The notes under the pieces were generated by a model that saw nothing but the letters and a program-made list of their open reading frames with translations, did not search any database and was not told where the DNA came from. A stretch of 64,000 nucleotides of DNA. Origin: Marinobacter sp. F3R08. GTDB taxonomy: Bacteria; Pseudomonadota; Gammaproteobacteria; Pseudomonadales; Oleiphilaceae. The translations under genes were made by a program, and so were the position numbers. How positions within the stretch are numbered: the first letter of the stretch is position 1; every line of letters begins with the position of its first letter. The stretch covers positions 124,001 through 188,000 of the forward strand of contig NZ_JAHKPI010000015.1 in assembly GCF_018860425.1 (NCBI RefSeq), read 5' to 3'. Below are positions 28,425 to 38,867 of this stretch, piece after piece.

Positions 28425-29003
28425 TCAGGCAGATCCTGTGAATGCCAGGACGAATTCCTGATGCAGCCAGATCATGGCGGTATAGCCCATGAGCCCTCCA
28501 ATCAGCGCGCCAGCTGCGACGTCACTGGGGTAGTGAAGTCCAAGAACCACCCGGGATGCAGCGACGCTGAGAGTGAATGGAAGCACCAAAATCGCCAGAG
28601 CCGGATCAGCAACCGTCAGCATAACCTGGAAGCAGGCGGCGTGAAGGGTGTGGCCTGAAGGGAAACTATAGCGGTCCAGTGGTGGTGTGCCGCAGTTGAT
28701 GGCCGGAAACGAAATGAAGGGCCGCTCCCGTATGAGCTTGCGCTTCAGGAATTTGTAGCTGATCGTGCAGGAGAGTCCGGTCAGCGTCATAAGTAAGGCC
28801 AGCCCCGGACCTGAATCCGGGTGGAGAAGGGGAATGGAAAGGATCAGGGCGTACCAGAACCAGCCGTCACCGAGTCGGCTAACCAGTCGAAAGTAACCTA
28901 GAGCAGGCCGGAAGCTGACCGCACGGTTGATGGACTGGCAGAATGCGACTTCCCGCTGGTCTGCCAGTTCAAAGAAGCGAGACGCTTTGCTTGTTGAGGG
29001 CAT
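28425..29003 (-). CDS. PAP2-family membrane phosphatase
   Basis: A 192-residue polytopic protein with the three PAP2 motifs: KLIRERPF, SFPSGHT and SRVVLGLHYPSD. Family members dephosphorylate phosphatidic acid, phosphatidylglycerol phosphate or undecaprenyl pyrophosphate. The ATG at 29003 lies inside the end of the upstream glycosyltransferase gene (35-bp overlap), so the two are coupled; TTG at 29045 is a longer alternative. A role in making diacylglycerol as acceptor for that glycosyltransferase is an inference from the pairing. Confidence 0.88.
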   Translation of the reverse strand: MPSTSKASRFFELADQREVAFCQSINRAVSFRPALGYFRLVSRLGDGWFWYALILSIPLLHPDSGPGLALLMTLTGLSCTISYKFLKRKLIRERPFISFPAINCGTPPLDRYSFPSGHTLHAACFQVMLTVADPALAILVLPFTLSVAASRVVLGLHYPSDVAAGALIGGLMGYTAMIWLHQEFVLAFTGSA

Positions 29004-30189
29004 GGTATCCGGCCTTTGCAGTTTGGTTGAGAACCAGGTGTTCAAACTGTTCGATCTGTGAGTTCCAGCTCTGTTCCAGGGCGTCCAGTCTGGCCTGGGT
29101 CCTGATTCGGTTCAGCAATGTCGGCTGATCCGCGAGCCGGAGTGCGCTATCGACGTAAGCCTCGTCCCGATCCAGAGGAACTTTCATTCCGTTTTCCCCG
29201 TTGCGGATGTGTTCGGCTGCTGCGGCATCGTCAAAGCTGACGACACCCAGACCGCTGGCCATGGCTTCCAGAACCACGTTGCCAAAAGTGTCGGTCTTGC
29301 TGGGGAAAAGGAACAGGTCACCCGAGGCGAAATGTCGCGCGAGGTCGTCGCCACGCTGAGTGCCACAGAACACGTAATCCGGGTGGCGTTCAGCCAATTG
29401 ATGTCGGAGTGGGCCGTCTCCAACCAGGATGAATCTGGCCTGAGGGTGAAGGCCCCGGATCCGCTCAAAGCAGGCAACCGCCATGCGCAAATTTTTCTCC
29501 GGTGCGAGCCGTCCCACATACAAAATGGCGCGGTCGTTGGTCTGCAAACCCCAGGATTCCCGGAGAGCGTTGTCCCGCTTGTGAGGGGTGAAGCGATGAC
29601 AGTCGACGCCGCGGCTCCAGAGCCCGGTGATCGGTATGCCCATGGCTCGGGTTGTCTGCTGCATTTTTCGGGTTGGCACGAGGGTAATGGCGGTACGATT
29701 GTGAAACCAGCGGCCGTAGAGACAGAGCAGCCGCTCAAGTACACCGACCCCATAGTATCGGCTGTAGCTGTGAAAGTTGGTATGGAAGCCGGAGCTCACC
29801 GGAACGCCGATTCGTCTGGCCGCAAATGTAGCGGCGACGCCCAGTGGACCCTGAGTGGCAACATAGATGGCGTCGGGACGGTCGGTGGTCAGGAGTTTCT
29901 TCAGATGGTTGATTCGGGCAATGCCGAAACGCAAATCGGCATAGCCTGGCAGGGGCAGACCGGTCACTAGATGCTCACGGGTGAACAGAGCCGAGCCGGC
30001 ACTGGCGAAGTCGCCTTTGCGCTCATGCTGCTGACGAGGCCGTATAACCGTCACTCGGTGCCCACGTTGCATCAGCCCCTGGCACAGGTATCTGAGGGTG
30101 TTTGCCACACCATTGATTTCCGGCGGAAAAGTCTCGGAAACAATGGTAATGTGTTGTTGGCGCCGGTTGGCCTGTTTGGTCTCGGTCAC
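28969..30189 (-). CDS. GT4-type glycosyltransferase, possibly glycolipid-forming
   Basis: A 406-residue GT-B glycosyltransferase. The N-terminal acceptor side begins TIVSETFPPEINGVANTLRY and includes SGFHTNFHSYSRYYGVG. The donor side has YVGRLAPEKNLRMAV, LVGDGP, and the E-x7-E region FPSKTDTFGNVVLEAMASG. This is the pattern of MgtA/DimB and SqdX-like enzymes that use GDP-mannose or UDP-/sulfo-sugars with lipid acceptors. A Pho-box-like array starts 50 nt upstream of its start. The downstream PAP2 gene overlaps it. Donor and acceptor cannot be assigned from sequence alone. Confidence 0.88.
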   Translation of the reverse strand: MTETKQANRRQQHITIVSETFPPEINGVANTLRYLCQGLMQRGHRVTVIRPRQQHERKGDFASAGSALFTREHLVTGLPLPGYADLRFGIARINHLKKLLTTDRPDAIYVATQGPLGVAATFAARRIGVPVSSGFHTNFHSYSRYYGVGVLERLLCLYGRWFHNRTAITLVPTRKMQQTTRAMGIPITGLWSRGVDCHRFTPHKRDNALRESWGLQTNDRAILYVGRLAPEKNLRMAVACFERIRGLHPQARFILVGDGPLRHQLAERHPDYVFCGTQRGDDLARHFASGDLFLFPSKTDTFGNVVLEAMASGLGVVSFDDAAAAEHIRNGENGMKVPLDRDEAYVDSALRLADQPTLLNRIRTQARLDALEQSWNSQIEQFEHLVLNQTAKAGYHALNKQSVSLL

Positions 30190-30237
30190 GGTGTTTCCTG
30201 TGCTTCCTTTGACATGCTCCTACTATGAAAAGCGGGC

Positions 30238-30264
30238 ATGACAGTTATGCGACACTCCCGTGAC
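30238..30264 (-). promoter_or_regulatory. Pho-box-like array for the GT4-PAP2 operon
   Basis: Read on the minus strand, GTCA, GTCG, GTCA occur at exact 11-bp steps (plus-strand TGAC at 30239, CGAC at 30250, TGAC at 30261). The 18-mer at 30238-30255 matches 14 of 18 positions of the E. coli Pho-box consensus. The proximal edge is 50 nt from the glycosyltransferase start, the same distance as for olsB. Confidence 0.65.
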
Positions 30265-30303
30265 ATTCCCTTTACCCGATAATCGAATCAAATCGGAGAC
30301 GAT

Positions 30304-31341
30304 ATGCAAACGCGAAAGCTTGGAAAAACGGATCTCGACGTCAGCCTTATATGCCTTGGGACCATGACCTGGGGCGAGCAGAACACAGAGCAGGAAGCAT
30401 TTGAGCAGCTGGATTTTGCAGTGAATGAGGGCATTAACTTCATCGATGCCGCTGAGATGTATCCCGTGCCGCCGCGCGCGGAAACCCAGGGTCTGACCGA
30501 AACCTACCTTGGTAACTGGCTTGCGAGCAGGGGCAAACGCGACGACCTCGTGATTGCTTCCAAAGTAGCAGGGCCTGGCAATGGCCTGACGTACCTGCGT
30601 AACGGGCCGCGTCTGACACGAGATCACATTCTGGAAGCCTGTGATGCCAGCCTGAAACGCCTGCAGACTGATTACATCGACCTCTACCAGGTGCACTGGC
30701 CGGATCGCAGCACGAACTTTTTCGGCAAGCTCGGTTATGAGCACAATCCGGACGAGTCTTTCACGCCTATCGAGGAAACTCTTGAGGCGCTGGACGAGCT
30801 TGTGCGGTCCGGTAAGGTCCGACACATTGGCCTGTCCAATGAAACGCCGTGGGGCACCATGGAGTATCTTCGTCTGGCTGGAGAAAAGGGCTGGCCCCGT
30901 GTGGCGAGTATCCAGAATCCCTATAACCTCCTAAACCGATCGTTCGAAGTCGGGATGGCGGAAATTGCTCATCGGGAACAGGCCGGTTTGCTGGCCTATT
31001 CGCCGCTGGCGTTCGGCATGTTGTCTGGTAAGTATCTGGGAGGTAAATGGCCAGAAAAAGCCAGAATGACCCTTTACGAGCGTTTCAGCCGATACACCAG
31101 CGACCGTGGCATGGATGCGACCCGGGCATACGTTGAGCTGGCTCGTGAAAACGGACTGTCTCCGGTCCAGATGGCACTGGCGTACGTGAACAGCCGGAGC
31201 TTTGTGACCAGCAACATCATTGGCGCCACGTCCATGGAACAGTTGCGTGAGAATGTGGGGTCTGCACAGGTTATTCTGAGCCCTGCAGTACTGGAAGCGA
31301 TTGAGGCCATTCATCAGGAATTTACCTATCCCTGCCCCTGA
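30304..31341 (+). CDS. Aldo-keto reductase of the Tas type
   Basis: A 345-residue NADP(H)-dependent (beta/alpha)8-barrel oxidoreductase. The catalytic tetrad is visible: Asp/Tyr in FIDAAEMYPVP, Lys in LVIASKVAG, and His in IDLYQVHWPDR. NADP-binding elements near the C-terminus include SNIIGATSMEQLREN. The insert between the PVPPRAETQGLTE stretch and the catalytic Lys is typical of E. coli Tas. Substrate unknown. It is divergent from the glycosyltransferase operon; the Pho-like repeats between them are oriented away from this gene. Confidence 0.9.
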   Translation: MQTRKLGKTDLDVSLICLGTMTWGEQNTEQEAFEQLDFAVNEGINFIDAAEMYPVPPRAETQGLTETYLGNWLASRGKRDDLVIASKVAGPGNGLTYLRNGPRLTRDHILEACDASLKRLQTDYIDLYQVHWPDRSTNFFGKLGYEHNPDESFTPIEETLEALDELVRSGKVRHIGLSNETPWGTMEYLRLAGEKGWPRVASIQNPYNLLNRSFEVGMAEIAHREQAGLLAYSPLAFGMLSGKYLGGKWPEKARMTLYERFSRYTSDRGMDATRAYVELARENGLSPVQMALAYVNSRSFVTSNIIGATSMEQLRENVGSAQVILSPAVLEAIEAIHQEFTYPCP

Positions 31342-31554
31342 GTGGCATCCCGGCTATAGCCTCCGGCCACCAGGTGTTGGCTGGAGGTTACAGTCTGAAA
31401 TATTAGAGATCATAAATTGACAAAAACATGGTGCTCCTGTGACAAAAAAGCGGCGCATTTGTGTGCGAAATCACAGCTTTCCAGCCTGTGTTTATTAGAC
31501 TTAAGCCTAATGTATCAGTAGACTCTCATTTCGAAAAAGGTCTCAGGCAGCGTC

Positions 31555-31878
31555 ATGGTTATTCGCATCTTCGTCGCATTACTCGCTCTAAATCTCCTGG
31601 CATTCGTCGTGCGTGCGGAAGCCTCCGGGCGGGTATTCGAAGTGGTCGAGAGCGCGACAACCAGTGAACAGGTTATTGAGATGGAGGACAGGGTTTTCGG
31701 CGACTTTGAAGATGACAGCTCAGAGGCAGTCACCGAAATCGGTTCCCGCCTTCTTAGCCTTACGTTGACCCGTTCAAAGACCACGGGCAGGCATTATGCG
31801 TCAGATCCTGCGCAGGCCGATCATGGCATTGCGCTTCTGAATGAGGGCGCCTGCCTGAACCTGAAGTGGAACTTCTGA
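31555..31878 (+). CDS. Small secreted protein of unknown family
   Basis: A 107-residue frame with a convincing signal peptide (MVIRIFVALLALNLLAFVVRAEA) followed by an acidic, hydrophilic region (EMEDRVFGDFEDDSSE). I do not recognise the family. A single cysteine near the C-terminus (GACLNLKWNF) argues against a disulfide-rich fold. It stands alone between the aldo-keto reductase and the acyl-CoA gene, with about 213 bp of AT-rich sequence upstream that could hold a promoter. It may be a real lineage-specific gene; no function is proposed. Confidence 0.6.
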   Translation: MVIRIFVALLALNLLAFVVRAEASGRVFEVVESATTSEQVIEMEDRVFGDFEDDSSEAVTEIGSRLLSLTLTRSKTTGRHYASDPAQADHGIALLNEGACLNLKWNF

Positions 31879-32005
31879 ACCCCTCGCATACCTCCCCACC
31901 TGCAAATCTTCTGAACTCAGAATCATGACCTGGCGCATTGTCTGCGCGCTGTGCTCGTGTGATCATCCGTGTTGGAACGCTTGTTAGCCAATAAGGAGCC
32001 TGGAC

Positions 32006-34216
32006 ATGGCGGGTGCTAGAGGGCAGTTATCGAACGACGTGAACGCCTGTGTTGATGAGGTGATTCGCCGGGTAGGCAAGGAAATTACTCTCGGGCTGCC
32101 GCTCGGGCTAGGTAAGCCCGTCCGCTTTGTAAATGCACTATACCAGCGGGCCAAAGACGACCCCGAGATTCGCCTGCATATTGTCACAGCGCTTTCGCTT
32201 CTGGCACCAATGGATGGCTCGTCGCTGGAAAAACGCTTCATGGGCCCGTTCGTGAAGCGCCTGTATGGTCGGATTCCGGAGCTGACCTATGCCCGGGATG
32301 TCTCAGGTAATTGTCTCCCGCAGAATGTCCAGGTCTCGGAGTTTTTCTTCAAGGCCGGCAGTTACCTGAACAATCGTTCCCAGCAGCGTCACTACGTTTG
32401 TACCAATTATACCCATGCCGTTCGTGATCTTATGGCGGTGGGTGTCAATGTGGTCGCCCAGATGGTGGCGTCGGGCGAGGCTCACGGGCAACCCGGGCAA
32501 GTCAGTCTGAGTTGCAACCCCGACCTGACGTTGGATTTGATTCCTTTGCTTCGGGAGCGGGAGGCCGCGGGCACGCCGGTTGCATTGGTGGCCGAGACCA
32601 ATCAGAACCTGCCGTGGTTCGGACGCCACGCGGCCCTTGACGCAACGCGGTTCGATATCGTGCTTGATGAGCCTTCCAGCGATTACCCGTTGTTTTCTGC
32701 CCCGCAGATGTCGGTTAGCCCGGAAGATCATATGATCGGGTTTTATGCGAGTACCTTGCTGAAGGATGGAGGAACTCTTCAGGTAGGAATTGGCTCTCTG
32801 GGTGCCGCCCTGGTACACAGCACCATACTGCGACACAGCCACAACGATGCGTGGCGGAAGGTGTTTGATCACCTCAAAGTTGATGAAACCTTCCCTGTCG
32901 TCCGGGAAGAGGGTGGCACCGGCCCCTTTAAAGAAGGGCTGTATGGTTGCAGCGAAATGATGGTTGATGGCTTTCTGTATCTGATGCAGGAAGGCATCCT
33001 GAGTCGTGAGGTTTATGATCATGCCGATCTGCAGGCGCTGATCAACCGGGGCGATCTTACTGTTGAACTATCTCTGACTACGTTGGATGTTCTGCGCCGC
33101 GAAAAGCTTATCGATAGTCCGCTGCAGGCAAGGGATGTCCATTGGCTTGTCCGGCATGGCATCCTGAAAGACGCTGTGGAATTCAAAGGCGGTCGGTTGC
33201 GTGTCGGTGATCAGTCGGTGGAGGGGGACCTGGACAACCCGGAAGCACGGGAAGCTATCGAGACCCTTGCTCTTGGAGAGCGGCTGACGGGCGGGATTGT
33301 CATGCATGGAGGCTTCTACGTGGGCCCCGAGCAGTTCTATCAGTCCCTGCGAGAGCTGCCCGACGAGCAGCGTGCGAAAATCTGCATGACCAGCGTGAAC
33401 TTCATCAATCACCTTTATGACCATCGATTCGGGAATCAGAAGCTGAAGGCAGCCCAGCGCGTCCATGGCCGTTTTATCAACTCGGCAATGATGTACACCC
33501 TTAATGGCGCCGGGGTATCCGACGGCCTGGAAGATGGTCGGGTGGTCAGTGGTGTCGGCGGGCAGTACAACTTTGTGGCCATGGCCCATGAACTTCCGGG
33601 AGCGCGTTCCATTCTGTCGCTGCGCAGTACCCGCTCATCAAGGGGCAAGGTACTCTCCAATATTGTGTTCAACTATGGCCATTGCACCATTCCCCGCCAT
33701 CTGCGGGATATTGTGATTACCGAATACGGGATTGCCGACCTGAGAGGGCAGTCAGACGAGCAGGTATTCCTCCGTTTGATCCGCATCGCGGATTCCCGAT
33801 TCCAGCAGGCGCTTCTGAAAAGGGCCCAGAAGGCGGGCAAGGTGAATCCCGATTTCAGGTTGCCGGCTGATTGGTGTAACAACACTCCGCAAGCCGTTCG
33901 GCAGGCAGTTGCTGTGACGGGAGATCCCGGTCTGTTCCCGCCATTTCCGTTTGGCAGAGACTTTACCGACGAGGAGCTGACGTTGGGGAAAGCCCTTAAG
34001 GGGCTGAAGGCCGCAACGGCCACTCGTCGTGGTAAACTGTCGACGCTGCTGAAGGCCCTCCGGGCCCGAGACGACGAAGGCCGGTATGGGGCCCTGCTGG
34101 AACGCATGGGGCTGGCCAGCCCTTCAGGATTGCGGGACAAGCTGGACCAACGTCTGGTTATCCATGGCCTGCAGCAGCTTGAATCACCACCGGATACAGG
34201 AAACTCGAAAACCTGA
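32006..34216 (+). CDS. Acetyl-CoA hydrolase/transferase family protein
   Basis: A 736-residue protein whose C-terminal half holds the CoA-transferase family-I fold: GVSDGLEDGRVVSGVGGQYNF in pieces around residues 505-530, then LSNIVFNYGHCTIPRH and ITEYGIADLRGQSDEQ. It is longer than classical acetyl-CoA hydrolases (about 430-550 residues), with an N-terminal region that also resembles the fold and a C-terminal extension. It may move CoA between acetate and another acyl group or hydrolyse acyl-CoA. Its stop shares a base with the slyD-like start (TGATG), implying coupled translation. Confidence 0.85.
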   Translation: MAGARGQLSNDVNACVDEVIRRVGKEITLGLPLGLGKPVRFVNALYQRAKDDPEIRLHIVTALSLLAPMDGSSLEKRFMGPFVKRLYGRIPELTYARDVSGNCLPQNVQVSEFFFKAGSYLNNRSQQRHYVCTNYTHAVRDLMAVGVNVVAQMVASGEAHGQPGQVSLSCNPDLTLDLIPLLREREAAGTPVALVAETNQNLPWFGRHAALDATRFDIVLDEPSSDYPLFSAPQMSVSPEDHMIGFYASTLLKDGGTLQVGIGSLGAALVHSTILRHSHNDAWRKVFDHLKVDETFPVVREEGGTGPFKEGLYGCSEMMVDGFLYLMQEGILSREVYDHADLQALINRGDLTVELSLTTLDVLRREKLIDSPLQARDVHWLVRHGILKDAVEFKGGRLRVGDQSVEGDLDNPEAREAIETLALGERLTGGIVMHGGFYVGPEQFYQSLRELPDEQRAKICMTSVNFINHLYDHRFGNQKLKAAQRVHGRFINSAMMYTLNGAGVSDGLEDGRVVSGVGGQYNFVAMAHELPGARSILSLRSTRSSRGKVLSNIVFNYGHCTIPRHLRDIVITEYGIADLRGQSDEQVFLRLIRIADSRFQQALLKRAQKAGKVNPDFRLPADWCNNTPQAVRQAVAVTGDPGLFPPFPFGRDFTDEELTLGKALKGLKAATATRRGKLSTLLKALRARDDEGRYGALLERMGLASPSGLRDKLDQRLVIHGLQQLESPPDTGNSKT

Positions 34217-34686
34217 TGACAGCTTCACAAACAAGACCCGACGTTTTTACCGTCCACTATGTGCTGAAGAACAAGGTCGGCGAGCTGGTCGATACGTCCG
34301 AAGGCAGTGAGCCTCTGCACTTCGTCTATGGCAGCCCCGAGATTATTGAAGGGATCCAACAGGCGGTGAAAGACCGCAATGTGGGGGATTGCCTGGAGGT
34401 GACGGTGCCTCCGGCAATGGCTTACGGAGAGCATAAGCCGGAGCTGGTGCGTAAGGTGCCCCGCTCACTGTTCGAAGGGATCGAGAACCTGCAGGTAGGC
34501 ATGAAATTCCAGACCAACACCGGCGATGAAGCGCAGATCGTTCAGGTGGTCGGAATTGATGGCAACCTGGTGAGGGTTGATGCCAATCACCCGCTGGCAG
34601 GCTTCACCCTGTACTTTGATCTGGAGATTGTTGGCCGCCGTGAAGCGACGGAAGATGAGGTAGTCCAGGGTCATCCTCTGTTCTGA
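34216..34686 (+). CDS. FKBP-type peptidyl-prolyl isomerase, SlyD-like
   Basis: A 156-residue protein with an FKBP core (VHYVLKNKVGELVDTSEGSE, HFVYGSPEIIEGIQQAV), an IF chaperone insert (around YGEHKPELVRKVP), and the C-terminal segment VDANHPLAGFTLYFDLEIVG typical of the SlyD/FkpB group. The His/Cys-rich nickel-binding tail of E. coli SlyD is absent; it ends QGHPLF. It catalyses proline cis-trans isomerisation and assists folding. The last 83 bp overlap the 3' end of the convergent acyltransferase gene. Confidence 0.9.
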   Translation: MTASQTRPDVFTVHYVLKNKVGELVDTSEGSEPLHFVYGSPEIIEGIQQAVKDRNVGDCLEVTVPPAMAYGEHKPELVRKVPRSLFEGIENLQVGMKFQTNTGDEAQIVQVVGIDGNLVRVDANHPLAGFTLYFDLEIVGRREATEDEVVQGHPLF

Positions 34687-35464
34687 GAACATCGATTGCC
34701 GGTTTGTCGTATTCACCCTTGTAGACCCGCTTCAGGCCGTCGAGCACCGTGTCTCTCAGGCTGAGAGCGAATTCGTTGGTTGGCATTGTTTCCGGTGGGT
34801 GCACCGCAGCATGGAAAACAACGTCGACCCGGGCGGCGGGTTGTCTGAGCATTCGCAGCAAATGGCTGAGGAACTCGTCTTCAGCAATGAAGGGGGCGAG
34901 ATGATCGGGGCGTCCGTTTCTGCGATAAGCAATGGTGATGGGCTGAACCGGTACCTTGCTTTCCGTTGCAGCCTTCAACAAAAGGCCATGGAACGGCAAT
35001 ACAGTCAGGCCGGCGCTCGTAGTGCCTTCCGGGTAAATCAGGACGTTCTCTCCGGCCTGCAGGTTGCCGATTATCTGGCCGCGTACGCGTCGGGCCTGAC
35101 CGCCTCCGCGCTGAATGAACAGCGTTCCGGCCTGCCGTGCTAGCCAGCCAATCACTGGCCATTTGGCCACTTCAGCTTTTGATAGGAACCGGATTTGCGC
35201 CAGGCTTCCCAAAACCGGGATGTCTGACCAACTGATGTGGTTGCTGACGAAGAGGGCGGTATTTTCTGATGGTAAGCCGTGCTGGTGTAGGTCCAGTCCC
35301 AAACACCGGCAGGCCCATCGGAGGCAGAATCTGGTCCAGGGCCGCCGATCGATTGCTTTACGGGTTATTATTTCAGTGGCTCGCAAGCTGGCGGCAAGCA
35401 TTGTGGTGGCTGCCAGAAAAGCGATAAAGGCTGTGACACGAACGCACAATCTGAGCCAGCTCAT
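34604..35464 (-). CDS. olsA: OlsA/PlsC-type lyso-lipid O-acyltransferase
   Basis: A 286-residue membrane-associated acyltransferase. One N-terminal hydrophobic helix is followed by the catalytic SNHISWSDIPVL (NHx4D), IQRGGGQARR and YPEGTTSAGLTVLPFH. The close link with the OlsB-like gene (20 bp apart) identifies it as the probable OlsA, which adds a second fatty acid to lyso-ornithine lipid; general PlsC activity on lysophosphatidate is the alternative. ATG at 35464 has a GGGAG site. The C-terminal tail of about 27 residues is encoded antisense to the SlyD-like gene. Confidence 0.8.
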   Translation of the reverse strand: MSWLRLCVRVTAFIAFLAATTMLAASLRATEIITRKAIDRRPWTRFCLRWACRCLGLDLHQHGLPSENTALFVSNHISWSDIPVLGSLAQIRFLSKAEVAKWPVIGWLARQAGTLFIQRGGGQARRVRGQIIGNLQAGENVLIYPEGTTSAGLTVLPFHGLLLKAATESKVPVQPITIAYRRNGRPDHLAPFIAEDEFLSHLLRMLRQPAARVDVVFHAAVHPPETMPTNEFALSLRDTVLDGLKRVYKGEYDKPAIDVLRTEDDPGLPHLPSLHGGQQSPDQSTG

Positions 35465-35481
35465 CTCCGAGACTCCCGACC

Positions 35482-36243
35482 TCAAGGGGCTGTACGCATG
35501 AAGTGTCGGCTGTAACGGTCAGCCAGTTTGCTCACCTCCAGTACGACCAGCAGATCCGCGCAGCGAAAATCAGGATCCCAACAGGGTTCACCGCAGACTC
35601 GGGCGCCAAGGCGCATGTAGGCTCGGATCAGAGCAGGTACGTCCACCGGGCGATCGGTGTCGCGGGTGTGGGTCAAATGAGGCATGGGTCTGAGTGGTTT
35701 GACCAAAAATGCCGGTTCCGCAAGGTATTCGGCCTGAAGATGACGGGCAGTGCGCCAGGCTTTGAGTCCTCCATCGGACATGCTGATGCTCGCGCAGCCG
35801 ATCATATAGTCAACGCCGCGCTCAACAAGATACTCGGCGACTGCCGACCAGAGTACGCTGATGGTTGCGCCGTTCCGGTAGTCCGGGTGGACACAGGTGC
35901 GCCCCAGTTCAGCGATGGTGCCCGGGAGTTTTTCCAGAGAGCTCAGGTCAAACTCTCCTGCAGAGTAAAAGCCGGCAACCGCTCCCGTGTTGGCCTGGTG
36001 CAGGACTCGCGTGGTAGCGACCAGTTCGCCGGAATCCAGGTCAGTTACGATCAGGTGGTCACACACTGTGTCGAACACGTCAGCATCGATGCCAGGCGTC
36101 TGAGCTCCAAGGTCACAGCCATATTCTTCTGAAAACACCTGGTATCGCAGCCGCTGTGCTGCCTCTATCTGTTTTGGGCATCGGGTTGTGTCGGTTTTCA
36201 GGCTGCGGGCACTGCGGCGGGCTTTCGCGGTTTGTGAGGTCAT
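35482..36243 (-). CDS. olsB: OlsB-type N-acyltransferase for ornithine lipid
   Basis: A 253-residue GNAT-fold enzyme of the OlsB/hemolysin-like group: RYQVFSEEYGCDLG, FDTVCDHLIVTD, IAELGRTCVHPDYRNGATIS and YMIGCASISMSDGG are family landmarks. OlsB transfers a 3-hydroxy fatty acid from acyl carrier protein to the amino group of ornithine, the first step of phosphorus-free ornithine lipid. The start at 36243 removes an upstream extension that is control DNA. Four Pho-box-like repeats begin 50 nt upstream, fitting known phosphate-limited expression of olsB in other bacteria. Confidence 0.82.
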   Translation of the reverse strand: MTSQTAKARRSARSLKTDTTRCPKQIEAAQRLRYQVFSEEYGCDLGAQTPGIDADVFDTVCDHLIVTDLDSGELVATTRVLHQANTGAVAGFYSAGEFDLSSLEKLPGTIAELGRTCVHPDYRNGATISVLWSAVAEYLVERGVDYMIGCASISMSDGGLKAWRTARHLQAEYLAEPAFLVKPLRPMPHLTHTRDTDRPVDVPALIRAYMRLGARVCGEPCWDPDFRCADLLVVLEVSKLADRYSRHFMRTAP

Positions 36244-36292
36244 GGCATCGTCTCTTTTATTTCCATTTCCCGACAAGCCTATGAAGCCGGTA

Positions 36293-36330
36293 TGACACAC
36301 CGGTGACCACGCTGTGACGTGTCTGTGACA
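36293..36330 (-). promoter_or_regulatory. Four-repeat Pho-box-like array for olsBA
   Basis: Plus-strand TGAC occurs at 36293, 36304, 36315 and 36326, an exact 11-bp period; on the minus strand these are GTCA repeats as in tandem PhoB sites. Individual 18-mers match the E. coli consensus only moderately (about 10 of 18), but phase, repeat number and the 50-nt distance to olsB are striking. Confidence 0.65.
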
Positions 36331-36417
36331 CTGGGGCAGTTTGGTTGCTTTGGAGTCTTTGTTGCGGGGTGTAACGAAGCAGCGGTTCCATGTATATTTA
36401 TGAATAGCATGTATAAT

Positions 36418-36488: not shown

Positions 36489-37226
36489 ATGGATGGCGTG
36501 GAACAGACAAACGAAAGTTGGCGAATTCTGATTGTCGAGGACGACGAGCGGTTGGCAGAGTTGACCCGTGAATACCTGGAAAGCAACGGGTTGACCGTCT
36601 CCCTGGAAACTCACGGTGGTCCAGCAGTTGAGCGGATCCGCAATGAACAGCCGGATCTCGTGGTGCTGGATCTTATGCTGCCGGGTGAAGACGGGCTGTC
36701 CATTTGCCGTCGGGTGCGCCCGTTTTATTCCGGCCCGATTATCATGCTGACCGCCCGCACCGATGACCTGGATCAGGTCCTTGGGCTGGAAATGGGGGCA
36801 GACGATTATATTGGTAAGCCGGTCAAACCCAGAGTATTACTGGCGCGCATCCGGGCCATGTTACGTCGGGTTTCCGAGACCGCACAGGGGGCAGGCGATG
36901 AAGCCGGTGGTGAAGAGCCTGTGCGCCTGCAGTTTAATGATCTGGTTGTTGATCGCTCTATGCGAGAGGCCTGGTTGAATGATGACAGTATTGATCTGAC
37001 CAGTGCTGAGTTTGATCTGCTCTGGTTGCTGGCCAGCAACGCAGGCCGCGTACTAAGTCGCGAAGAAATTTTCACTGCTTTGCGTGGCATTGAGTACGAC
37101 GGTCAGGATCGTTCCATTGATGTTCGTGTGTCTCGGATTCGACCCAAGATTGGAGATGATCCTATTCACCCGCGGCGCATCAAGACCGTACGCAGTAAAG
37201 GCTATCTGTTCGTGAAGGAAGCCTGA
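36489..37226 (+). CDS. rstA: RstA-like OmpR-family response regulator
   Basis: A 245-residue regulator: receiver domain with acidic pair in ILIVEDDERLAEL, phospho-acceptor Asp61 (VVLDLMLPGEDG) and Lys in GADDYIGKPVKP, then a winged helix (LTSAEFDLLWLLASNAGRVLS, DVRVSRIRPKIGDDP). Overall it most resembles RstA, the partner of RstB. ATG at 36489 is used as annotated; GTG at 36498 is also possible. The sensor gene follows 66 bp later. Its targets here are unknown. Confidence 0.88.
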   Translation: MDGVEQTNESWRILIVEDDERLAELTREYLESNGLTVSLETHGGPAVERIRNEQPDLVVLDLMLPGEDGLSICRRVRPFYSGPIIMLTARTDDLDQVLGLEMGADDYIGKPVKPRVLLARIRAMLRRVSETAQGAGDEAGGEEPVRLQFNDLVVDRSMREAWLNDDSIDLTSAEFDLLWLLASNAGRVLSREEIFTALRGIEYDGQDRSIDVRVSRIRPKIGDDPIHPRRIKTVRSKGYLFVKEA

Positions 37227-37292
37227 CGATTCAGTCTCTGGAGCCGGTGTGCAATTCATCCGCTACCGGTGTTCCATGCCAGGGTTGAAACC

Positions 37293-38867
37293 ATGCCCCT
37301 GAAGTTCTTCCTCAAGCTCTACGCTCGCCTTGCCGGCCTGGCCGCACTGGTTGTGGTGGTCTGTGTCCTCCTGTTCTCTGGTATCAACACGGTACGCTCG
37401 CAGTTCTGGCACGAGCGTTTTCCCGAGCCCCTGATGCGCTGGTTAGCGGCGTCTCCGGCACCGTTACATCAGTACCATTGGCTGGGCTCCACAGTGGGTC
37501 TCCGGATGGGCGACGCGTCCCGGTTTAATCTGTCCCCGGTGGCGGTGGAGCGACTTGGCTACGGTCAGGTGGTGAGTGTCGAGAGTGATGTGGGGTATCG
37601 GGTTCTGGTAACCGGTCTCTCGGGAGACATTCTGCAACTACGTCTAAGCGAGCCCTACCGGGACGTGTCGGAAACGATTGGTCTGATCATTCGATGGCAT
37701 CTTGATTCAGCCCCGGCGAACGACCGTGTCAGTGTTGCCTCGCAAATGGCCCAATCTCTCGACGTTGAAGTCCGACGTCTGGGGGATGCCGGCATGCTGC
37801 CCGATCCTGATGTTCTGGATCAGGTCGTCGAGCGTGGCCTTGCGTTTTACACTGATGAAGCAGATGGCTGCGGTCGAGTCATCGTTAAGCTGTCTGATGG
37901 CGAGCTGTTCCAGATCGTCATGCCAACGGGATTCAACGCCTGGGCCTGGCCAGTGGTTCTGTTGCTGGTACTGGTACTGGGAGCGATGCTGGCTGTAGCG
38001 CTGTTTCTTGCTCTGCGGGAGGTTGACAGTAATCTCCGGACTGTAGAGTCGGTAGCGGTGAGAATCGCCCGGGGAGAAATGGGCGCTCGGGTGCAGGCCG
38101 GTGATGGGACGTTGGTTACCCGTTTGGCCTCGTCATTCAATGGAATGGCCGAACATATACAACGTTTAGTGCAGGTCCAGCGGGAAATGATACATGCCGT
38201 TTCCCATGAGTTACGTACTCCGGTGGCCCGAATCCGCTTTGGTGTGCAGATGATAGAAGACTGTCAGGATTCCGCTGCGCTTCAGAGGCAACTGGACGGC
38301 ATTGATGGCGACATCCAGGAACTGGATGAGCTGATAGACGAGATTCTCACTTATGCTCGTTTGGAGCAGGGTGGCCCGGTATTTTCCATTCAGGAAGCAT
38401 CGGTAACGGATATTGTTCGCCAGGTGGTTTCCGAGCAACAGATGGTTCGACCGGAATTGAAAATTGAAAGCAGTATTGATGAGGTCTCCGAACGTTGGGC
38501 GCTGTCGGATATTGAGCCTCGATATCTGCATCGGGCAATCCAGAATCTGGTGGGCAACGGTGGCCGCTACGCCGCTGGCAGAGTGTTGGTAAACTGTCAT
38601 TTTGACGAGGACAACTGCCGTATTGATGTGGAAGACGATGGCCCGGGCATTCCCGAGGAAGACTGGGACAAAGTGTTCACTGCGTTCGCGCGTCTGGACG
38701 ATAGCCGCACCCGAACCTCAGGCGGTTACGGCCTCGGCTTGTCTATAGTCCGGCGGATTCTGTACTGGCATGGAGGGCACGCCTTCGTCAGCAGGAGCGA
38801 CACGCTTGGTGGTGCAAAGTTCAGTCTTGTCTGGCCGCGAAAGAAGCCCATGGACTCCATCGTGTGA
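37293..38867 (+). CDS. rstB: RstB-like sensor histidine kinase
   Basis: A 524-residue inner-membrane kinase. Transmembrane segments near residues 12-35 and 215-240 enclose a periplasmic domain of about 180 residues. A HAMP domain, the H-box VSHELRTPVARIRFG with His305, and ATP-binding boxes (NLVGNGGRYA, EDDGPGIPEED, GYGLGLSIV) follow. Arrangement and neighbour point to RstB. ATG at 37293 is chosen because MPLKFFLKLYARL is the usual start; an upstream in-frame ATG at 37269 exists. A strong terminator follows at 39015. Confidence 0.88.
   Translation: MPLKFFLKLYARLAGLAALVVVVCVLLFSGINTVRSQFWHERFPEPLMRWLAASPAPLHQYHWLGSTVGLRMGDASRFNLSPVAVERLGYGQVVSVESDVGYRVLVTGLSGDILQLRLSEPYRDVSETIGLIIRWHLDSAPANDRVSVASQMAQSLDVEVRRLGDAGMLPDPDVLDQVVERGLAFYTDEADGCGRVIVKLSDGELFQIVMPTGFNAWAWPVVLLLVLVLGAMLAVALFLALREVDSNLRTVESVAVRIARGEMGARVQAGDGTLVTRLASSFNGMAEHIQRLVQVQREMIHAVSHELRTPVARIRFGVQMIEDCQDSAALQRQLDGIDGDIQELDELIDEILTYARLEQGGPVFSIQEASVTDIVRQVVSEQQMVRPELKIESSIDEVSERWALSDIEPRYLHRAIQNLVGNGGRYAAGRVLVNCHFDEDNCRIDVEDDGPGIPEEDWDKVFTAFARLDDSRTRTSGGYGLGLSIVRRILYWHGGHAFVSRSDTLGGAKFSLVWPRKKPMDSIV

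What the first reader, a model, noticed from the sequence alone, without database searches (positions are those of the whole stretch)
28425..36330. Candidate phosphate-starvation lipid-remodelling locus with two matching Pho-box arrays
Two operons carry GTCA repeats at exact 11-bp period on the coding strand. One precedes a GT4 glycosyltransferase plus PAP2 phosphatase (three repeats), the other olsB-olsA (four repeats). The proximal edge of both arrays is 50 nt from the start codon. PAP2 could make diacylglycerol, GT4 could glycosylate it, and OlsBA makes ornithine lipid, so both arms would yield phosphorus-free lipids. PhoB control of olsB is known elsewhere; joint control of a linked GT4-PAP2 pair here is the new inference.
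Basis: partly seen in the sequence, partly recalled or inferred. Interest (0 to 1): 0.75.

Follow-up and report, generated by a model that had tools for sequence, protein, structure and literature searches.

The report
Phosphate-controlled membrane lipid replacement genes
Two neighbouring gene pairs in this bacterium sit behind matching phosphate-starvation switches and very probably let the cell replace phosphorus-containing membrane lipids with sugar lipids and ornithine lipids; most of the pathway is known from Pseudomonas, and the built-in lipid phosphatase partner looks like a new variant.

Summary
Upstream of GT4-PAP2 (three units, the middle one GTCG) and olsBA (four units) GTCA-type repeats run at 11-bp period on the coding strand. 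The arrays are conserved: score >=16 in 30 of 30 GT4 and 22 of 24 linked olsB loci of the genus, against 22 of 4638 control windows. phoB and the main pstS of the genome carry the same box and layout, so PhoB control is the best reading. Another strong array precedes plcP. The GT4 groups with P. aeruginosa Agt2, a published glucuronosyl-diacylglycerol synthase (PMC8528852). In other Gammaproteobacteria olsB, olsA, GT4, PAP2 and sometimes plcP share one cluster. The lipid-replacement reading is thus well supported by comparison, but nothing was measured and the PAP2 substrate is unknown. The new part is the conserved PAP2 partner, kept also in the 10 of 30 GT4-positive congeners in which no PlcP was found. 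Verdict: new variant of the known PlcP-Agt/OlsBA system.

The parts
28969..30189 (-). GT4 glycosyltransferase, Agt2 clade (406 aa, GTG start); predicted diacylglycerol glycosyltransferase
   Evidence: Pfam Glyco_transf_4 and Glycos_transf_1; 48.8% identity to the P. aeruginosa GT next to plcR; Agt2 clade in tree
28425..29003 (-). PAP2-type membrane phosphatase, start overlapping the GT4 end (the ORF can also be read from TTG 29045)
30238..30266 (-). Pho-type array of three 11-bp units ahead of GT4-PAP2
   Evidence: conserved in 30 of 30 genus loci
30222..30227 (-). -10-like hexamer CATAGT, 10 nt after the array (picked by eye)
   Evidence: CATAGT in 27 of 30 genus upstreams
35482..36243 (-). 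olsB-like gene, ornithine N-acyltransferase-like (253 aa from ATG 36243)
   Evidence: NCBIfam OlsB models 149.3 and 147.9 bits, below their cut-offs of 320 and 350
34604..35485 (-). olsA-like gene, lyso-ornithine-lipid O-acyltransferase-like
   Evidence: NCBIfam OlsA models 158.3 and 134.9 bits, below cut-off 300; Pfam Acyltransferase
36292..36331 (-). Pho-type array of four 11-bp units ahead of olsBA
   Evidence: score >=16 in 22 of 24 linked loci, 15 in the other two
36276..36281 (-). -10-like hexamer TAGGCT, 10 nt after the array (picked by eye), inside a conserved block that begins TTCATA
   Evidence: TTCATA[AG] found in 24 of 24 linked loci
30304..31341 (+). aldo-keto reductase divergent from GT4; not part of the system
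   Evidence: NCBIfam PRK10625 473 bits; next to GT4 in 29 of 30 genus loci
36489..37226 (+). RstA-like response regulator divergent from olsB; not PhoB
   Evidence: best NCBIfam RstA 262.2 bits of 330 needed, PhoB model 168.9 of 296.2; beside olsB in 24 of 24 linked loci

Best explanation
The two operons are PhoB-controlled parts of one phosphorus-sparing lipid-replacement module. At low phosphate, phosphorylated PhoB binds the tandem 11-bp units and recruits polymerase to a -10 element 10 nt downstream (inferred from the layout shared with phoB and pstS; not shown). GT4, an Agt2-type enzyme, puts a sugar on diacylglycerol: glucuronic acid by orthology to P. aeruginosa Agt2, though glucose is not excluded (inferred). 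Diacylglycerol comes from phospholipids through PlcP, encoded elsewhere behind its own array, and from phosphatidate through the adjoining PAP2 phosphatase (PAP2 step: inference, about 0.5). OlsB and OlsA make ornithine lipid. The module is one cluster in some other Gammaproteobacteria and is split into blocks 5.3 kb apart here.
For: Arrays conserved: GT4 30 of 30, linked olsB 22 of 24, plcP 22 of 23 genus loci at score >=16, against 22 of 4638 control windows; GT4 of the remaining positive congener, G015, also has one (score 19). PhoB above the curated cut-off, 354.1 against 296.2 bits; boxes of 12/14 ahead of phoB and the main pstS, reached by 1 of 300 shuffles each, with 10 nt to a -10-like hexamer as in GT4 and olsB. 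Array ahead of plcP. GT4 in one clade with P. aeruginosa Agt2 (SH-aLRT 95), apart from the plcP-linked GTs of the Pseudomonas family; the order plcH-plcR-GT fits PA0844-PA0843-PA0842 (PMC5150637 passages), and PA0842 = Agt2 suffices for glucuronosyl-DAG in E. coli (PMC8528852 passages). PAP2 beside GT4 in 30 of 30 genus, 30 of 30 f24 and 23 of 29 distant loci fetched. Clusters: olsB-olsA-GT4-PAP2 in L333 and L336-L339; GT4-PAP2-olsB-olsA in L348; GT4-plcP-PAP2-GT-olsB-olsA in L343 and L345 (20 regions picked for hints of linkage, not at random). PlcP in 20 of 30 GT4-positive congeners and 0 of 6 GT4-negative ones (Fisher p 0.004, relatedness not corrected).
Against: No expression, binding or lipid data. 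PAP2 substrate undecided: fold matches include LpxE, PGP phosphatases and acid phosphatases. GT4 (25 of 33 rows shown), OlsB, OlsA and PAP2 fall below the NCBIfam cut-offs of the families they hit, as does the plcP product. The first acidic residue of the EX7E-type motif (recalled) is Asp in 28 of 30 genus rows and in 5 of 6 plcP-linked GTs, but Glu in 8 of 8 Pseudomonas-family orthologues and both P. aeruginosa Agt2 rows, so the sugar may differ from Agt2's. 16 of 29 distant, 11 of 30 f24 and 3 of 8 Pseudomonas-family GT4 loci and 13 of 25 plcP loci outside the genus set score below 16, as do both P. aeruginosa Agt2 upstreams (15), in part because some genes lie inside operons. Of seven olsB-led clusters (L333-L339) two reach 16 ahead of olsB (L333, L338); the three GT4-led ones and L342 do. 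7 of 31 GT4-positive genomes of the genus have no linked olsB.
Confidence: 0.8

Rival explanations
1. PAP2 is not the diacylglycerol source but a phosphate scavenger or envelope phosphatase (lipid A, PGP, C55-PP or released head groups) that rides in the operon; PlcP alone feeds GT4 where it is present.
Against: In 10 of 30 GT4-positive congeners no PlcP was found at E <= 1e-30, yet all ten keep GT4-PAP2 (two of the ten genomes are incomplete, 62% and 84%). PAP2 sits between plcP and a GT in L343 and L345.
Confidence: 0.4
2. GT4 makes a phosphorus-containing glycolipid (glycosyl-phosphatidylglycerol) or another glycoconjugate rather than a glycosyl-diacylglycerol.
For: The best NCBIfam model is N-acetylglucosaminyl-phosphatidylglycerol synthase, 128.8 bits of 480 needed; alpha-monoglucosyl-DAG synthase follows with 89.5 of 400.
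Against: Agt2 clade membership; coupling to phosphatases, plcP and olsBA behind Pho-type arrays.
Confidence: 0.1
3. The arrays bind another OmpR-type regulator, for example the RstA-like one next to olsB, and respond to another signal.
For: The RstA-like gene stays beside olsB in 24 of 24 linked loci.
Against: phoB and pstS carry the same box and layout; the units match the Pho-box consensus quoted in PMC8528852 and PMC11828411 (passages); GT4 keeps its array in genomes where no OlsB was found at E <= 1e-20 (L018, L022, L028).
Confidence: 0.06
4. The repeats are chance or composition artefacts.
For: No genome-wide excess of weak matches: 33 against 32 in the control.
Against: Conservation in 30 of 30 and 22 of 24 loci against 22 of 4638 control windows.
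Confidence: 0.01

Closest known systems
PlcP-Agt1/Agt2 lipid renovation of Pseudomonas aeruginosa (PMC8528852, passages seen)
   Same: Agt2-clade GT4 and plcP behind Pho boxes; phosphorus-free lipids as expected products
   Different: Here GT4 is paired with PAP2 instead of following plcH-plcR, lies 5.3 kb from olsBA, and plcP stands apart from it
PlcP-based remodelling in marine heterotrophs (PMC4796936, passages seen)
   Same: Pho boxes, PlcP and glycosyltransferases; the paper names phosphatidate dephosphorylation as the other possible route to DAG
   Different: That paper assigns DAG in marine heterotrophs mainly to PlcP and phosphatidate phosphatases to cyanobacteria; here a PAP2 is a fixed partner of the glycosyltransferase
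OlsBA ornithine lipid pathway with a Pho box at olsB in Acinetobacter (PMC11828411; outline, sections 6 and 8, and passages seen)
   Same: olsB behind a Pho box
   Different: Here olsBA is a two-gene operon near GT4-PAP2; in A. baumannii olsA lies elsewhere and is not induced

Membership tests
PhoB (Pho) regulon promoters | tandem CTGTCAT-like units at 11-bp period on the coding strand | tested here: met
PhoB (Pho) regulon promoters | same box ahead of phoB and pstS in the same genome | tested here: met
   12/14 boxes, 1 of 300 shuffles each; a second pstS-like gene has 12/14 too; a third substrate-binding gene has none (10/14, 64 of 300)
PhoB (Pho) regulon promoters | PhoB binding and induction at low phosphate | not testable with these tools
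   needs footprint or expression data
Agt2-type DAG glycosyltransferase | falls in the clade of the characterised enzyme, apart from Agt1 | tested here: met
   quick tree of 99 rows, SH-aLRT 95 for the clade of 85; the careful search did not finish and long branches were flagged
Agt2-type DAG glycosyltransferase | makes glucuronosyl-DAG | not testable with these tools
   no assay; motif Asp instead of Glu noted
OlsB / OlsA | NCBIfam equivalog cut-off | tested here: not met
   149.3 of 320 and 158.3 of 300 bits; best-scoring families nonetheless, so called OlsB-like and OlsA-like
PAP2 phosphatase | KX6RP, PSGH, SRX5HX3D motif (recalled) and PAP2 fold | tested here: met
   (30 of 30 genus loci)
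Phosphatidate phosphatase | phosphatidate as substrate | not testable with these tools
   fold neighbours have several substrates
PlcP | homology to the phosphoesterase next to the plcP-linked GT of the Pseudomonas family | tested here: met
   45-46% identity in six such loci; no PlcP model was hit in NCBIfam, only LpxH-like ones below cut-off
GlcNAc-PG synthase (NF053787) | curated cut-off | tested here: not met
   128.8 of 480 bits

The most novel reading that the evidence does not exclude
In many Gammaproteobacteria, glycolipid replacement of phospholipids runs through a dedicated PAP2 phosphatidate phosphatase fixed to an Agt2-type glycosyltransferase, which taps phosphatidate and makes PlcP optional; the unidentified low-phosphate lipid U3 of Acinetobacter would be a product of its array-fronted GT4-PAP2 pair.
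Probability: 0.35. Interest if true: 0.6.

Novelty: new variant of a known kind. Interest (0 to 1): 0.5.

Why it matters
It would extend phosphate-driven lipid replacement to a large set of Gammaproteobacteria and add a second entry point for diacylglycerol, from phosphatidate rather than from existing phospholipids. That changes the prediction of which genomes can do it: plcP alone would miss 10 of the 30 GT4-positive congeners examined. It also gives a concrete candidate for an unidentified Acinetobacter lipid.

Tried and rejected
Chance repeats: rejected by conservation. The 50-nt spacing as a signal: spacing varies among congeners. RstA-like neighbour as the controller: unlikely. The idea that GT4 without a linked PAP2 always has PlcP: it held in the six distant GT4 loci without a PAP2 within about 1.5 kb (all six genomes PlcP-positive), but L106 is cut by a contig end, L105 has a 33% PAP2 match a little further off, and six cases are too few to tell from chance. 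One search was given 80 genomes: 36 congeners, 29 distant ones and 15 of the 30 f24 genomes with fetched loci; 20, 23 and 7 had PlcP. Two-unit scan of the genome: 106 matches against 77 in the control at up to 2 mismatches, so most are chance; not used to list a regulon. Organism name: not established; three searches of the plasmid collection gave no close relative; a Marinobacter-like genus is my recollection only. The names Pseudomonas family for f20 rest, where an alignment of f20 GT4 proteins found named Pseudomonas loci at 70-95%. Literature: no paper pairing PAP2 with Agt in low-phosphate lipid remodelling appeared in searches (listings with counts and abstract starts; capped lists); one listed paper with 'pap2' counts, PMC10128005, was opened and the word turned out to be plasmid names. 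Subscription papers and preprints are mostly outside that library.
Full report
What is in the sequence. On the minus strand a GT4 glycosyltransferase (28969-30189) is followed with overlap by a PAP2 phosphatase (28425-29003), and an olsB-like gene (35482-36243) by an olsA-like one (34604-35485). Ahead of GT4 lie GTCAC, GTCGC and GTCAT at exact 11-bp steps; ahead of olsB four GTCA units at exact 11-bp steps; the proximal GTCA is 49 nt from the start codon in both. In both, the proximal GTCAT is followed by 10 nt and then a -10-like hexamer picked by eye, CATAGT or TAGGCT.

Is it more than chance. Genome-wide, the three-unit pattern with 0 or 1 mismatch occurs at 9 places, 6 sites, in 4.23 Mb; both arrays are among them, one further site precedes plcP, and three are unexplained. 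Allowing 2 mismatches gives 33 hits against 32 for the reversed control, so weaker hits are uninformative. GT4 is found in 30 of 36 congeners plus this genome at E <= 1e-40. Scoring three CTGTCAY units at period 11 within 260 nt upstream, score >=16 of 21 is reached in 30 of 30 GT4 loci fetched from the genus (own included), 22 of 24 linked olsB loci (the other two score 15) and 22 of 23 plcP loci, but in 22 of 4638 windows taken elsewhere in the same loci; four unlinked olsB homologues have 0 of 4. The 30 GT4 proteins are 63-100% identical to the window's, and CATAGT is kept in 27 of 30 upstreams. The genomes are related, so these counts are not independent trials.

Is it PhoB. A PhoB gene scores 354.1 bits against a curated 296.2. 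phoB itself and the main pstS have a two-unit box, 12 of 14 matches, reached by 1 of 300 shuffles each, again with 10 nt to a -10-like hexamer. A second pstS-like gene has such a box too; a third substrate-binding gene does not. The consensus quoted in the literature is CTGTCATNNNNCTGTCAT (passages of PMC8528852 and PMC11828411). PhoB control is thus inferred, not shown.

The missed piece. Another of the strong sites (C11:37793-37830) is a four-unit array ahead of a metallophosphoesterase. Its relatives in the Pseudomonas family lie beside a second glycosyltransferase (45-46% identity, six loci), as in the published plcP-agt1 pair (PMC8528852). NCBIfam gives only weak LpxH-like hits, so the name PlcP rests on that homology and position.

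What the GT4 is. In eight Pseudomonas-family genomes the window GT4 matches one gene at 51-52% identity and the plcP-linked GT, where listed (six), at 33-38%. In a P. aeruginosa record the 48.8% match follows plcH and plcR; PA0844 and PA0843 are plcH and plcR (PMC5150637 passages and a figure legend), so it is taken as PA0842 = Agt2, which suffices for glucuronosyl-DAG in E. coli (PMC8528852 passages). A quick maximum-likelihood tree of 99 rows (15 of the 30 f24 loci used) puts window GT4, its congeners, P. aeruginosa Agt2, Acinetobacter and the distant homologues in one clade of 85 (SH-aLRT 95), apart from the plcP-linked GTs (the careful search did not finish, long branches were flagged). 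Against a simple transfer of function, the first acidic residue of the EX7E-type motif is Asp in 28 of 30 genus rows, as in 5 of 6 plcP-linked GTs, and Glu in the Pseudomonas Agt2 rows, so glucose is not excluded.

The module elsewhere. PAP2 lies beside GT4 in 30 of 30 genus loci, in the 30 best-scoring loci of another family of the order, f24 (100 of 121 genomes there have GT4 at E <= 1e-50), in 23 of the 29 best distant loci (42 of 369 genomes of the class, own included, have GT4 at E <= 1e-60), and in an A. baumannii record with an array ahead. Of 20 longer regions, chosen for hints of linkage, 12 hold olsB in the same cluster: olsB-olsA-GT4-PAP2 in five, GT4-PAP2-olsB-olsA in one, GT4-plcP-PAP2-GT-olsB-olsA in two, and four other orders (in two of those four, L341 and L342, the GT falls outside the Agt2 clade). 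Arrays of score >=16 lie ahead of olsB in two of seven olsB-led clusters (L333, L338) and in L342, and ahead of GT4 in the three GT4-led ones. In this genus the two blocks stay 4.2 to 5.4 kb apart in 24 of 31 GT4-positive genomes.

Known and new. Pho-controlled OlsBA, PlcP and Agt2 are each published. A PAP2 fixed to Agt2 across Gammaproteobacteria did not appear in searches. A. baumannii makes an unidentified low-phosphate lipid, U3, that is not among the two reported as ninhydrin-positive (PMC11828411 sections 6 and 8); linking it to the GT4-PAP2 pair there is my conjecture.

Noticed in passing
G000 C11:37793-37830 (L033, L140): Four-unit array ahead of plcP; a third arm of the same regulon outside the window
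   Followed up: yes
G000 C22:353863-353880 (L170): The only perfect two-unit Pho box in the genome precedes a ParA-like (by eye) 246-aa ORF of unknown link to phosphate
   Followed up: no
G000 C21:231375-231392 (L174): One-mismatch two-unit box ahead of an ORF that looks like a fatty acyl-CoA reductase (my recollection), which would tie storage lipid to phosphate
   Followed up: no
window 36489-38867: RstA/RstB-like two-component pair divergent from olsB; the regulator stays beside olsB in 24 of 24 linked loci
   Followed up: partly
L075-L078: Four congeners carry a more distant OlsB homologue at another place, without an array at the threshold
   Followed up: partly
L219 4768-6722: A. baumannii GT4-PAP2 pair with an 11-bp array ahead (score 17); candidate source of the unidentified lipid U3
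   Followed up: partly
window 31555-31878: 107-aa ORF between the two blocks, with a hydrophobic N-terminus; not examined
   Followed up: no
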